From NCBI GenBank assembly GCA_018402235.1, contig JAGYJJ010000002.1, positions 249,251 to 313,250 on the forward strand: DNA of 64,000 nt. Direction: 5' to 3'. The position numbers and the translations under genes are program-made. Within the stretch, counting starts at the first letter, position 1. Each line of letters starts with the position of its first letter. Of this stretch, positions 10,360 through 29,290 are shown piece by piece. The notes beneath the pieces are model-generated. The model was not told the DNA's origin. It searched no databases and saw only the letters and a program-made list of their open reading frames with translations. The stretch is from Candidatus Nanopelagicales bacterium (GTDB taxonomy: Bacteria; Actinomycetota; Actinomycetes; S36-B12).

Positions 10360-11735
10360 CAGGAAGGAAGCCGGGCTCCGAGCCACGCCACCAAAGAGTC
10401 GATACCGATCCGCTCTTGTGTCATCGAGTCGCGTTCGCGAACCGTCACAGCCTGGTCTTCGAGGGAATCGAAGTCCACGGTGATGCAAAACGGCGTTCCG
10501 ATCTCGTCCTGACGGCGATAACGGCGTCCGATCGCGCCAGCGTCGTCGAACTCCACGTTCCACTGCTTGCGCAGCATGGCCGCGACGTCCTTGGCCTTCG
10601 GCGATAGATCGGCGTTTCGAGACAGCGGCAGCACCGCAGCCTTAACCGGAGCCAGGCGCGGATCAAGGCGCAGCACCGTGCGCTTGTCCACACCACCCTT
10701 GGAGTTCGGAGCTTCGTCCTCGTCGTATGCATCGAGCATGAACGCGAGCACCGCACGGGTCAGTCCTGCGGCAGGCTCGATCACGAACGGCGTCCAGCGC
10801 TCGTCGATTTCCTGATCGAAGAAGGACAGGTCCACACCGGACTTCTCGGCATGCGTTTTGAGGTCGTAGTCCGTGCGGTTGGCAACGCCCTCGAGTTCGG
10901 CCCACTCACTGCCCGCGAACCGGAACCGGTACTCGATATCCACGGTGCGCTTGGAGTAGTGCGAGAGTTTCTCCGCGGGGTGCTCGAAGAAACGCATGTT
11001 CTCCGGATTCAAACCCAGATCTACGTACCAGTCCCAGCGGTTCTTCAACCAGTACTCGTGCCATTCCTCGTCGGTGCCCGGCTTGACGAAGAACTCCATC
11101 TCCATCTGCTCGAACTCGCGGGTGCGGAAGATGAAGTTGCCCGGGGTGATCTCGTTACGGAAGCTCTTGCCTGTCTGGCCGATCCCGAATGGCGGCTTCT
11201 TGCGCGAGGCGTTCATCACGTTGAGGTAGTTCACGAAGATGCCCTGGGCGGTCTCCGGACGCAGGTAGTGCAGCGCACCCTCATCCTCGACTGGGCCGAC
11301 CATCGTGCGCAGCATCCCGTTGAAGTTCTGCGGCTCGGTGAAGTTGCCCTTGGTTCCGCAGTTCGTGCACACCACATCGAGCAAGCCCTCCGGCGGCTCG
11401 TGCCCGTGCTTCTCGGCGAACGCATCGATCAACTGATCTGCCCGCCAGCGCCGGTGACACTGCTTGCACTCGGTGAGCGGATCGACGAAGGCATCCACGT
11501 GACCCGATGCCACCCACACCTGCGGGGCCAAGATCACCGAGGAGTCGATGCCCACCACATCGTCGCGCCCACGAACCATGTGCTGCCACCACTGCCGGCG
11601 CACGTTTTCCTTGAGTTCCACGCCGTTGGGGCCGTAATCCCAAGCCGAGCGGGTGCCTCCATAGATTTCCGAGGAGGGAAAGACGAAACCGCGTCGCTTC
11701 GAGAGATTGACGACGGCATCAACGCGATCGGCCAC
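10356..11735 (-). CDS. glyS: Glycyl-tRNA synthetase (class II, dimeric type)
   Basis: 459 aa single-chain glycine-tRNA ligase, the usual actinobacterial form. It starts [24 protein letters not shown], has four cysteines (CKQC and CTNC, residues about 88-135) of an inserted zinc module, motif 2 around [24 protein letters not shown], and the [12 protein letters not shown] segment. The C-terminal anticodon-binding domain contains [15 protein letters not shown]. Length and motifs are normal, with no frameshift. Confidence 0.95.
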
Positions 11736-11819
11736 AAGACGCTCCTATTCCGAAGCGCCCTGCGCGCTTCCACTCCGGCTGGCTGTCGGCGGATTGGCGC
11801 TGAGTCTACGAGCAGGCTG

Positions 11820-12077
11820 CTACTGCGGATCCTCCTGGCTCTGCTGCCGCAAGTGATCACGATCGTCCACTGCCTGCAAGATCTGATTCATTCGCTCCTC
11901 GCGACCATCGCGAATCATTTGGATGATCTCGGCGGTGCTCAACCGTGGGCCGTCTCCACGCAATGCGTTTAACTCTCGTTTCTCGCGTTTCCAACGTTCC
12001 CAGCGCTCGGCGAAGAAGCGTTCGTCGTCCCGGCCCTCATCGTCCGGCGTGACCGGCTCAATATCCATGACGCTCAC
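11820..12077 (-). CDS. Short acidic protein, possible stand-alone antitoxin tail (third gene of vapBC operon)
   Basis: 85 aa, highly charged, predicted helical, no known domain. It resembles the C-terminal half of the adjacent VapB: ERWERWKREKRE against QRWQRWQAGR, and TAEIIQMIRDGREER against PEEVLSWIRDSRAD. The DNA-binding N-terminus of VapB is absent. It starts 3 bp after the vapC stop, so it is cotranscribed. It may be a second toxin-neutralising peptide or the remnant of a duplicated antitoxin; this is inference. Met4 (12068) is an alternative start. Confidence 0.55.
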   Translation of the reverse strand: MSVMDIEPVTPDDEGRDDERFFAERWERWKREKRELNALRGDGPRLSTAEIIQMIRDGREERMNQILQAVDDRDHLRQQSQEDPQ

Positions 12078-12080
12078 ACC

Positions 12081-12464
12081 TCAAGAAAAGACGACAAGCC
12101 CTAGGGCTGTGGCGGCTCGCTGCATCTGTTTATCCAATGTTGCGACTGCATCACCCCGCTCCAGAGCGAGGGCAACGTACGTGGCATCGAACGCGCTCAA
12201 GCCGTGATCGAAGGCCATCTCCATCACCGAGTCGGTCAAGGCGGAGTGCAATGAATCGGGAAAGAAAAGCACTTGGTTCAAAGCCTGAAGCCCATCCTCT
12301 CGCGAAACCGCGCCTCTTCGAATTCGCTTGAGCACCGCGTTGCGACATTCATCGACGTACAGGGTTGGCGCAAGTACTTCTTCATTTCGCAGCGCATACA
12401 GGCGCTCACCACTTGCTTCTAGATACGCCTCGATTGCGTACGAGGTGTCCAGGACCACGTTCAC
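12081..12464 (-). CDS. vapC: VapC-type PIN-domain ribonuclease toxin
   Basis: 127 aa from a GTG at 12464. PIN pattern: VVLDTSYAIEAYL with the first Asp, YVDECRNAVLKR with the conserved Glu, LSAFDATYVALAL with an Asp, and AVATLDKQMQRAA with the last Asp. VapC toxins cut tRNA or rRNA. The GTG overlaps the vapB stop (GTGA), the standard coupling in such loci; an ATG at 12491 would overlap vapB further and adds nine unconserved residues. Confidence 0.82.
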   Translation of the reverse strand: MNVVLDTSYAIEAYLEASGERLYALRNEEVLAPTLYVDECRNAVLKRIRRGAVSREDGLQALNQVLFFPDSLHSALTDSVMEMAFDHGLSAFDATYVALALERGDAVATLDKQMQRAATALGLVVFS

Positions 12465-12760
12465 AGGTCGGCCCTGCTGTCGCGAATCCACGAAAGGACT
12501 TCTTCCGGCGATGGATCAGGATCGCCGAAAGCCTCCCGCATGATCGTTCGCCCTGCCTGCCAGCGCTGCCACCTCTGTTCCTTGCGCGCATCGTCATCGA
12601 GCATCGCTCGAGGTGTCTGCAGATGCGCTTCCGGAGCGACGATGTGGGCAACCGGCTTGCCATGCCGGGTCACCATCACGTCTTCCTCCCCGGACTCCAC
12701 CAGGGCGATCAAACGCGAGAAATCGGTGCGGGCCTCATAAATGCCGACATTGATGGTCAT
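12461..12760 (-). CDS. vapB: Phd/YefM-type VapB antitoxin
   Basis: 99 aa from ATG 12760 (an ATG at 12778 would add six residues). The Phd/YefM DNA-binding domain is clear: NVGIYEARTDFSRLIALVESGEEDVMVTRHGKPVAHIV. A charged C-terminal tail (DARKEQRWQRWQ...EEVLSWIRDSRADL) should bind VapC. A tandem palindromic element lies 19 bp upstream. It is the first gene of a three-gene operon. Confidence 0.83.
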   Translation of the reverse strand: MTINVGIYEARTDFSRLIALVESGEEDVMVTRHGKPVAHIVAPEAHLQTPRAMLDDDARKEQRWQRWQAGRTIMREAFGDPDPSPEEVLSWIRDSRADL

Positions 12761-12778
12761 GAACAGACCATACGCCAA

Positions 12779-12802
12779 TTCTGATCAGACTTCTAGTCAG
12801 AA
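12779..12802. promoter_or_regulatory. Tandem 12-bp palindromic operator of the vapBC locus
   Basis: Two adjacent 12-mers, TTCTGATCAGAC and TTCTAGTCAGAA, each close to a dyad (the first contains the perfect TCTGATCAGA). They sit just upstream of vapB and overlap the last codons of the phosphoribosyltransferase gene. Tandem half-sites like this fit cooperative binding of Phd/YefM dimers. Confidence 0.5.
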
Positions 12803-13368
12803 CTCCCGACCACTGCCTCGGCTTCCCCGGATTCACCAGCTTCTCCGGCCTCACCAGACTTGGGTACGCACTCGGTCACCCACCCGCGCTTCCACGCCTG
12901 CCGCTCCAGGATGAACCGCCCCATGTCATCGTCGATGGGATCGAACTCCTCGTAGTGCCAGGCCAGCGAGCGCCGAGCCAGTGGCCGGTCGATTGCGATG
13001 ACCTCATCAACCATCAGGTCCAGCCAGGCCTGCACTTCTTTGGGAACTACAGGCATCGCAACGAGCACCCGTGCCGCGCCTGCATCGCGCACTGCCTGCA
13101 CAACTGCCCGCGCAGCGGTTCCGGTTTCGATGCCGTCGTCCACGATCACCACCGTTCGCCCCTCGACCGGTGGCAACTCCGTGACCCGCACAACCTCACC
13201 TTCACGTTCGAGGAACGCAGCTCCCACATCCATGCGAGTTTGCTTGGCGATCCGGCAGGCAACCGCGATGCCGCTGGGCATGATCGCGATCAGCAGCGAA
13301 TCGCGCGGCAGATCAGCTAGTAAGGGTGCGAGCCGGTCCCCCGCATCAGCCAGGTTCGCGAACTTCAT
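12793..13368 (-). CDS. Type I phosphoribosyltransferase-family protein
   Basis: 191 aa. The PRPP-binding loop is VVIVDDGIETGTAA (residues about 72-85), preceded by the hood strands SLLIAIMPSGIAVACRIA. The last 20 residues are a Glu/Ala/Gly-rich tail. Substrate is unknown; many such orphan proteins are annotated only as phosphoribosyltransferase. ATG 13368 overlaps the stop of the upstream monooxygenase-like gene by 4 bp (ATGA), so the pair is translationally coupled. Confidence 0.78.
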   Translation of the reverse strand: MKFANLADAGDRLAPLLADLPRDSLLIAIMPSGIAVACRIAKQTRMDVGAAFLEREGEVVRVTELPPVEGRTVVIVDDGIETGTAARAVVQAVRDAGAARVLVAMPVVPKEVQAWLDLMVDEVIAIDRPLARRSLAWHYEEFDPIDDDMGRFILERQAWKRGWVTECVPKSGEAGEAGESGEAEAVVGSSD

Positions 13369-13787
13369 CGCTCAACACCACTAAACGATCCATGAATGGA
13401 TGCCACTGACGCAGCGGCAGCCGATCCCAAACCGACATCGCCATGATCGGCGGCCAGTCCGCTGGCGAAGAGTCGTTCACCGGTCTCATCGAGAACAACG
13501 ACGCATTCAAACGCGCTCGGCTCATCGACAGCCAAAGAAAGCAGCGGAATCACCTGCGCCTTCACTTCGAAACGGCTGAGCGCCTTGCGATACGCACCTA
13601 CGTTCGTCCACGAAGTGGATACGACCATCAAGTTGGCGTCGTCGGTGGCCTGCGCAATCTGACCGCGCAGAAAACCCGTCGATTCACCCAAGATCGCCAG
13701 CGCCGCGCGCATCTGTGCAAGCCACGAGGTGCGGTCAGCATCCACCCGGTACCGCGAGACCACCAGAACTGGGGCGGCCTCCCCCAT
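13365..13787 (-). CDS. ABM-fold (antibiotic biosynthesis monooxygenase-like) protein
   Basis: 140 aa from ATG 13787. The segment PVLVVSRYRVDADRTSWLAQMRAAL, then LRGQIAQATDDANLMVVSTSWTNVGAYRKAL, has the dimeric alpha-beta barrel pattern of ABM proteins. The longer reading frame from 13892 would overlap the divergent gene at 13870, and its extra 35 residues are not conserved-looking, so I reject that start. No cofactor motif is visible; the function is open. Confidence 0.66.
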   Translation of the reverse strand: MGEAAPVLVVSRYRVDADRTSWLAQMRAALAILGESTGFLRGQIAQATDDANLMVVSTSWTNVGAYRKALSRFEVKAQVIPLLSLAVDEPSAFECVVVLDETGERLFASGLAADHGDVGLGSAAAASVASIHGSFSGVER

Positions 13788-28903: not shown

Positions 28904-29290
28904 GTCTACGCCGAGATCACGGGCTCGCCGAGCGAGGCGCGAATCGAAGGTGACAACCGCCGATGAGGTCTGGCGCGCGGTATCCAGAACGCAGCAGTCG
29001 GGCAATCCCAGCCCCGTGGAGGCCCGAAGAGACGCCAACCGCCAGGGCTGCTCGTCATCCACCTTGGTCACATGCACTCCCAGGAAATCCCAGATCCTGC
29101 GCACTTGGTCGACGACCCCGGCTGCTGATGGGCGGATTGCGGCTTCCGCGACGTTGAACGGGTGGATCAGCAATGTTCGTCGAAATGTCGATCTGCGGAT
29201 GAACCAGGACGCATCTTCGTAATGGGGATCATCTTCGTCAGTCAACGCGATGAGCACGTTGGCGTCTAGCGTCACTAGTTCCCTAGGCAT
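28892..29290 (-). CDS. vapC: VapC-type PIN-domain toxin
   Basis: 132 aa. PIN acidic positions are visible: [15 protein letters not shown] at the start, [10 protein letters not shown] with a Glu, [11 protein letters not shown] with an Asp, and [13 protein letters not shown] at the end. ATG 29290 overlaps the antitoxin by 8 bp; the frame from 29371 adds unconserved residues. Its last codons form half of the CIRCE element of hrcA, so the hrcA promoter lies inside this gene. Confidence 0.8.

What the first reader, a model, noticed from the sequence alone, without database searches (positions are those of the whole stretch)
11820..12760. VapBC operon with a third antitoxin-tail gene
The 85-aa protein copies the charged C-terminal segment of VapB but has no DNA-binding domain. 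A free toxin-binding peptide would change the stoichiometry and the conditional repression of the locus. I know of no standard three-gene form with this layout.
Basis: partly seen in the sequence, partly recalled or inferred. Interest (0 to 1): 0.5.

Follow-up and report, generated by a model that had tools for sequence, protein, structure and literature searches.

The report
Toxin operon with a second antidote
A bacterial toxin-antidote gene pair here carries an extra small gene that resembles only the toxin-gripping tail of the antidote, so the toxin may be held by two related antidotes, only one of which can bind DNA.

Summary
On the minus strand a Phd/YefM-type vapB (12760-12461) and a PIN-domain vapC (12464-12081) are followed by a third small gene (ATG 12068 or GTG 12077, to 11820). 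Its residues 14-58 align with the VapB tail (15/43 identical, BLASTP E 6e-5; 0 of 5000 shuffles reach the score). No DNA-binding domain was recognised in it. It keeps the anatomy of VapC clamps: a W-xx-W pair, then an Arg 30 residues on. "GR" ends all 21 filtered relatives' antitoxins and stands in the third protein, but reads "SR" in this VapB. Between two congeneric genomes the three genes have dS 0.04-0.15, against 0.54 in both neighbours, so they share a recent history. Most likely the third protein is a second, DNA-binding-less antitoxin, paralogous to the VapB tail. Binding, neutralisation and regulation are not shown; an AlphaFold proxy was inconclusive. The trio was found in two genomes of one actinobacterial genus. 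Three-component toxin systems, one with two antitoxins, are known (SpoIISABC, pasABC, HipBST); ten searches of an open-access library showed me no VapBC of this build.

The parts
12461..12760 (-). vapB: 99-aa Phd/YefM-type antitoxin, with a tail longer than in most of the relatives seen
   Evidence: PF02604 5.6e-10 at residues 5-44; phd_fam TIGR01552 2.1e-6; relatives' lengths from the Phd motif on are 75-80 aa
12467..12598 (-). VapB toxin-binding tail segment aligned to the third protein (RWQRW ... IRDSR)
12081..12464 (-). vapC: PIN-domain toxin, acidic residues D6, E39, D93, D111 present
   Evidence: PF01850 3.3e-9; the four acidic residues are invariant in 16 aligned sequences; fold search of the fused model: PAE0151 and PAE2754 (PIN proteins, recalled) first, then VapBC11, VapBC15 and FitAB
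11820..12068 (-). third gene: 82-aa protein (85 aa if the GTG at 12077 is used) without a recognised DNA-binding domain; proposed second antitoxin
11895..12029 (-). tail-like segment of the third protein, residues 14-58 (RWERW ... IRDGR)
12077..12082 (-). GAGGTG ribosome-binding site of the third gene, overlapping the vapC stop codon; 8 nt before the ATG
   Evidence: sequence; duplex energy -9.5 kcal/mol, against -5.7 for vapC and -7.5 for vapB; 5% of random 22-mers of the window reach -10.3 and 10% reach -8.8, so modest
12779..12802 (.). operator-like inverted repeat TTCTGATCAGA / TCTAGTCAGAA upstream of vapB
   Evidence: 11-nt arms, 82% complementary; kept but for one base in the second genome. 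No sigma-70-type promoter found
11813..13420 (.). block present in this genome but missing at the same site in four congeners; holds vapB, vapC, the third gene and a phosphoribosyltransferase gene
12793..13368 (-). phosphoribosyltransferase-domain gene upstream; a neighbour in the block, not counted as part of the toxin module
   Evidence: PF00156 1.3e-6; dS 0.544 against 0.04-0.15 in the trio

Best explanation
This is a VapBC toxin-antitoxin operon extended by a second, DNA-binding-less antitoxin. VapC is the PIN-type nuclease toxin. VapB binds the operator upstream of vapB through its Phd/YefM domain and grips VapC with its tail. The third protein is a paralogue of that tail: its W-xx-W helix docks on the side of VapC and its IRDGR arginine enters the acidic active site, as in solved VapBC complexes. 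It would neutralise VapC without adding DNA-binding units. It would thus act as a buffer that lowers free VapC and competes with VapB for it, loosening the toxin-dependent repression. Shown: gene layout, tail relation, clamp-like motif, shared recent history of the three genes. Inferred: binding, neutralisation, effect on repression.
For: Tail alignment well above shuffles; VapB is the best non-self match in the window and in the own genome. Clamp anatomy kept: W-xx-W and the clamp Arg 30 residues after the last W; 29 in VapB, 24-30 in the 9 of 21 relatives that have a W...W pair. The relatives' clamp matrix, built without this VapB, ranks the third ORF 3rd of 411. Published VapBC structures show aromatic anchors plus an Arg in the active site as a conserved mode of inhibition (PMC3384007, passages), and free VapB11 tail peptides (10-1000 uM) inhibit VapC11 in vitro (PMC6265470, passages). 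The trio has dS 0.04-0.15 against 0.54 in both flanking genes, and lies in the least-divergent 1060-bp stretch of a 10.3-kb alignment. Four congeners lack the block, with its edge within 10 bases of the third gene's stop. Start codon and ribosome-binding site kept in the second genome.
Against: No contact with VapC is shown; the fused model has block-mean pLDDT 32-57 over the third protein. Only two genomes carry it, so conservation is thin, and dN/dS of the third gene (0.016/0.040; 5 differences) does not demonstrate selection. In G004 an unrelated place outranks VapB as match to the third protein. Pairwise, the third protein is no closer to 21 relatives' tails than shuffles are (231 of 500 reach the best score), although this VapB's tail does little better (142 of 500). 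Two unrelated window ORFs outrank it in the clamp matrix. No sequence elsewhere was confirmed as a relative.
Confidence: 0.58

Rival explanations
1. The third gene is a relic: an antitoxin-tail fragment left by an old duplication of vapB (or of a tandem vapBC) that no longer does anything.
For: No recognised DNA-binding domain, found in only two genomes, dN/dS not informative.
Against: The reading frame, the ATG and the ribosome-binding site are intact in both genomes. The clamp motif is intact, and closer to the relatives' pattern than the clamp of this VapB. The divergence from VapB (about 35% identity) looks old, whereas an unselected frame would be expected to decay (inference).
Confidence: 0.2
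2. The third protein is an antitoxin for another PIN toxin (lost, or elsewhere in the genome), or an anti-addiction factor, and merely sits here.
For: The own genome has 13 PIN genes above the Pfam cut-off, and solo antitoxins are common (PMC2701414, passages).
Against: Its closest match in the own genome is the VapB of this very operon, and it shares its recent history with this vapBC.
Confidence: 0.1
3. The third protein is a pure regulator: it pairs with VapB or VapC to change operator binding but does not block the active site.
For: Added free tails would change the VapB:VapC ratio on which conditional repression depends (established knowledge of type II systems); the operator-like repeat is present.
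Against: The clamp Arg motif, expected to matter for blocking the active site, is kept.
Confidence: 0.07
4. vapC and the third ORF are one gene: reading through the TGA between them yields VapC with a built-in antitoxin tail.
For: Both are in the same frame, separated only by TGA GGT, in both genomes.
Against: Same frame is a one-in-three chance. The third ORF has its own ribosome-binding site. I did not search for signs of stop-codon recoding.
Confidence: 0.03

Closest known systems
VapBC type II toxin-antitoxin systems with Phd/YefM-type VapB
   Same: PIN toxin with four acidic residues, Phd/YefM antitoxin with a C-terminal tail, overlapping genes, operator-like repeat
   Different: Standard form has two genes; here a third gene encodes a separate tail-like protein, and VapB ends in SR where the 21 filtered relatives end in GR
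SpoIISABC of Bacillus (PMC4526809, abstract; PMC4803016, section 11)
   Same: One toxin with two antitoxins encoded at one locus, each able to bind and neutralise it (there shown, here inferred)
   Different: The toxin is membrane-bound SpoIISA, not a PIN nuclease, and each gene has its own promoter
pasABC of plasmid pTF-FC2 (PMC4803016, section 11)
   Same: Antitoxin, toxin, and a third component that appears to enhance neutralisation and to play no regulatory role
   Different: Other toxin family (recalled: RelE-like); the text read says nothing of PasC resembling the PasA tail
HipBST (PMC9325769, abstract)
   Same: Three genes, with the neutralising protein separate from HipB (HipB as the DNA-binding member is recalled)
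   Different: Kinase toxin; HipS corresponds to the N-terminal part of HipA, not to an antitoxin tail
paaR-paaA-parE and omega-epsilon-zeta (PMC4803016, section 11; PMC5086665, passage)
   Same: An antitoxin without a DNA-binding domain beside a DNA-binding protein
   Different: ParE or zeta toxin, and the regulator is not a second antitoxin; here the DNA-binding protein keeps a toxin-binding tail of its own

Membership tests
VapBC type II toxin-antitoxin | PIN-domain toxin with conserved acidic active-site residues | tested here: met
   PF01850 3.3e-9; D6, E39, D93, D111 invariant in 16 sequences; VapBC complexes among the fold-search matches
VapBC type II toxin-antitoxin | Adjacent upstream antitoxin with a DNA-binding domain | tested here: met
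   PF02604 5.6e-10 and 4-nt overlap with vapC
VapBC type II toxin-antitoxin | Antitoxin tail with Arg clamp for the PIN active site | tested here: inconclusive
   VapB has Arg in IRDSR but lacks the GR of the 21 filtered relatives; the third protein has IRDGR. Phd-type antitoxins beside more distant PIN genes (L072; L096) do not end in GR either
VapBC type II toxin-antitoxin | Palindromic operator at the promoter | tested here: inconclusive
   Inverted repeat 12779-12802; no sigma-70-type promoter match in the region
VapBC type II toxin-antitoxin | Toxicity of VapC and neutralisation by VapB | not testable with these tools
   Needs expression in a laboratory strain
Three-component system with two antitoxins (SpoIISABC kind) | Third gene product neutralises the same toxin | not testable with these tools
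   Inferred from tail similarity only; fused AlphaFold model inconclusive
SpoIISABC | Membrane toxin SpoIISA | tested here: not met
   The toxin is a PIN protein
paaR-paaA-parE / omega-epsilon-zeta | ParE or zeta toxin with a separate dedicated repressor | tested here: not met
   PIN toxin, and the DNA-binding protein is itself a VapB with a tail
HipBST | HipA-like kinase toxin | tested here: not met
   PIN toxin

The most novel reading that the evidence does not exclude
The two antitoxin jobs have been split between paralogues inside a VapBC operon. VapB, whose clamp has lost the glycine of GR that its 21 filtered relatives keep, now works mainly as the operon's repressor, while the small third protein with the intact IRDGR clamp is the main neutraliser. 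This would be a VapBC caught on the way to a regulator / toxin / antitoxin system of the PaaR or omega kind. (Odds lowered from 0.22 to 0.20 on checking, because two more distant Phd-type antitoxins, L072 and L096, also do without GR.)
Probability: 0.2. Interest if true: 0.6.

Novelty: new variant of a known kind. Interest (0 to 1): 0.42.

Why it matters
VapBC is described as by far the most numerous toxin-antitoxin family (PMC4803016, passage), and its control is usually explained by one antitoxin that both binds DNA and grips the toxin. A natural free tail, encoded next to the toxin, would separate the two roles in one operon and let one test how the toxin:antitoxin ratio sets repression and toxin release. 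It would also show how three-component systems can arise from two-component ones by paralogy of a tail.

Tried and rejected
Relatives of the third protein: none accepted beyond the two genomes. The genome-contig scan gave 83 pattern stretches and 1 relative, L012. At E<=0.1, 7 of 40 relatives rang; at E<=0.01, 5 of 166 order genomes. Two of those five are the known ones; I inspected the other three (G018, G071, G076): the hits lie in longer open frames (155-273 aa), not in small antitoxin-like genes, and I took them as chance. Of the weaker hits I inspected L006 as well; L007, L008 and L009 were not inspected. At E<=0.005, 3 of 394 class genomes rang, and a profile of both tails rang in 5 of 396 phylum genomes; apart from the own genome these lie in frames of 426 and 499 aa or cover only 22-27 profile positions, and I did not inspect them. 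No match in 72,556 plasmid or 50,697 phage records at E<=1, and none of 35 viral-contig stretches was confirmed. The AriB hit of the third protein in PADLOC (E 0.0026) and the designed helical-repeat hit in the PDB (0.0022 for the whole sequence, but 74 or worse for each stretch) were put down to charged helices.

Selection on the third gene: dN/dS is not informative. One search used a misplaced start that cut off most of vapB; one search replaces it.

Direct comparison of the third protein with 21 relatives' tails by Smith-Waterman fails to beat shuffles. The position matrix does better, but two unrelated ORFs outrank the third one there, and its score (10.58) is below the lowest leave-one-out score of the training tails (12.8).

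The GR count rests on a filter (Phd-like N-terminus and a following ORF with a D-[AST]-[SN] start pattern). Phd-type antitoxins that fell outside it, L072 and L096, do not end in GR; L062 has GR but far from its end; L094 has GR near its end.

Other three-gene forms in the own genome: of 13 PIN loci above the Pfam cut-off, the script listed 12 (L067 fell through its filter). By eye no other has a short antitoxin-tail gene next to it; my loose tail pattern also rang in ORFs at L062, L063, L068 and L073, taken as chance. The same listing for VapC relatives in other genomes came back cut, so I give no count for it.

A four-gene module with the phosphoribosyltransferase was considered, because the gene is absent together with the trio in four congeners, but set aside because its dS is that of the flank.

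Full report
WHAT IS THERE. On the minus strand, between a phosphoribosyltransferase-domain gene (13368-12793) and a gene with the class II tRNA synthetase core and anticodon-binding domains (11735-10356; called glyS, a name recalled), lie three closely packed genes. vapB (12760-12461, 99 aa) has a Phd/YefM domain confined to residues 5-44 (PF02604, 5.6e-10). vapC (12464-12081, 127 aa) overlaps its stop by GTGA and is a PIN protein (PF01850, 3.3e-9) with D6, E39, D93 and D111 invariant in 16 aligned sequences. The third gene starts a few bases after vapC. The ATG at 12068 (82 aa) is the better start because GAGGTG lies 8 nt before it (duplex energy -9.5 kcal/mol, against -5.7 for vapC and -7.5 for vapB; the 16S tail used was recalled). 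This is a modest site: 10% of random 22-mers of the window reach -8.8 and 5% reach -10.3. The third protein matches no Pfam, NCBIfam or PHROGs family at E<=1.

IS THE TAIL SIMILARITY REAL? BLASTP gives 15/43 identities, E 6e-5 for the single comparison. The Smith-Waterman score of 70 is reached by 0 of 5000 shuffles of the third protein, 0 of 5000 of VapB and 0 of 5000 of the VapB tail, all composition-preserving. Among 411 window ORFs of 60 aa or more, VapB ranks first after self with 70; the next has 50. In the six-frame search of the 2.2-Mb own genome the best non-self match is this same VapB, E 0.08. In the second genome, G004, its VapB appears with E 0.065 but behind an unrelated place with E 0.028. 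The genome-wide E-values are weak on their own; the argument is that the match lies in the neighbouring gene.

THE CLAMP. Antitoxins upstream of related VapC genes in other genomes of the family end in GR followed by 0-2 residues: 21 of 21 distinct sequences that passed my filter (some are near-duplicates). Phd-type antitoxins beside more distant PIN genes need not: L072 and L096, outside the filter, do not end in GR. The VapB of this locus ends IRDSRADL, while the third protein has IRDGR and then 26 more residues. A position matrix built from 19 of the 21 tails (two near-duplicates dropped, this VapB excluded) scores the third ORF 10.58, third of 411 ORFs, and this VapB 2.67; leave-one-out scores of the training tails run from 12.8 to 32.6. 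Both proteins keep a W-xx-W pair with the clamp Arg 30 (third) or 29 (VapB) residues after the last W; the 9 of 21 relatives with a W...W pair (spaced W-xxx-W) have 24-30. Against this, pairwise alignment of the third protein to the 21 relatives' tails is no better than shuffles (231 of 500), nor is that of the VapB tail by much (142 of 500). So the two tails of this locus are close to each other and far from the rest, which fits paralogy within the locus.

WHY A FREE TAIL COULD WORK. In Shigella VapBC, four aromatic residues of the VapB tail anchor on VapC, and Arg64 (with Gln66) enters the active site; the authors call this a conserved mechanism (PMC3384007, passages). In VapBC11, Arg62 contacts the active-site acids, and peptides taken from the VapB11 C-terminus alone (10-1000 uM) inhibit VapC11 cleavage of tRNA in vitro in a dose-dependent manner (PMC6265470, passages). 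A separate tail-only protein is thus mechanistically plausible. Whether this one binds is not shown. Because vapC and the third ORF share a frame with only TGA GGT between them, I folded them as one chain (table 4, five-row alignment) as a stand-in for a complex. Mean pLDDT was 59.4; ten-residue block means were 49-84 over the PIN part and 32-57 over the third protein. Two helices are predicted in the third protein (chain residues 148-168, 177-211), but no placement can be trusted. The fold search of this model put PAE0151 and PAE2754 first (PIN proteins, recalled), then VapBC11, VapBC15 and FitAB.

HISTORY. The full trio was found in 2 of 10 genomes of the genus: this one and G004, whose contig matches locus L012 in length and alignment, a MAG titled Actinomycetota bacterium casp15-mb.155. 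In four congeners with glyS and its upstream flank on one contig (L048-L051) the stretch 11813-13420 is missing, its near edge within 10 bases of the third gene's stop codon; in a fifth the contig ends at that point; three had no glyS match at E<=1e-50. This absent stretch includes the phosphoribosyltransferase gene, which was likewise found at full length in 2 of 10. Between the two carriers, synonymous divergence is 0.107 (vapB), 0.150 (vapC) and 0.040 (third), against 0.543 (glyS) and 0.544 (phosphoribosyltransferase). The least-divergent 1060-bp stretch of the 10.3-kb alignment starts at 11692 (37 differences; median 146.5) and covers nearly all of the trio. I read this as a recent exchange of the three genes as one unit. 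dN/dS of the third gene (0.016/0.040, 5 differences) cannot by itself show selection. VapC matches in other genera of the family (E<=1e-6) are at most 37% identical.

HOW IT MOST LIKELY WORKS. VapB represses from the operator-like repeat at 12779-12802 (no sigma-70 promoter match) and grips VapC. The third protein grips VapC too but brings no DNA-binding domain. It should therefore lower free toxin and draw VapC away from the repressor complex. That the third protein is a second antitoxin: 0.58.

WHAT IS KNOWN. Three-component type II systems are reviewed in PMC4803016 (section 11 read): pasABC with a third component that appears to improve neutralisation and has no regulatory role; omega-epsilon-zeta and paaR-paaA-parE with a separate regulator; SpoIIS with two antitoxins. 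SpoIISC binds and neutralises SpoIISA as SpoIISB does (PMC4526809, abstract). In HipBST the neutraliser HipS is a protein of its own (PMC9325769, abstract). My ten searches of the open-access library (listings, with passages of some of the papers) showed me no VapBC with a second, tail-only antitoxin; some listings were capped, and subscription papers and preprints are not held. This is a new variant of a known kind, in two genomes, with function inferred.

Noticed in passing
window 12083-12075: vapC and the third ORF are in the same reading frame, separated only by TGA GGT, in both genomes; readthrough would give a VapC with its own antitoxin tail.
   Followed up: partly
window 11692-12790: The vapB-vapC-third stretch is far less diverged from L012 than its flanks (dS 0.04-0.15 against 0.54), as if exchanged recently between species.
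   Followed up: yes
window 12793-13368: A phosphoribosyltransferase-domain gene is absent together with the toxin module in four congeners; it has a weak hit to the ShosT profile of PADLOC (E 0.00043).
   Followed up: partly
L015 and L016, downstream of vapC: A Phd-VapC pair is followed at once by another small antitoxin-like gene and a Fic/Doc-like gene (names recalled from the motifs), a tandem of two toxin-antitoxin modules.
   Followed up: no
window 28919-29272 (L063), minus strand: A second PIN gene in the window (E 8.2e-14) with no small upstream antitoxin by my filter; the gene downstream looks like the repressor HrcA (recalled).
   Followed up: no
G000, whole genome: 13 PIN genes above the Pfam cut-off in a 2.2-Mb genome, with small upstream genes that look like antitoxins of several types (read by eye).
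   Followed up: no
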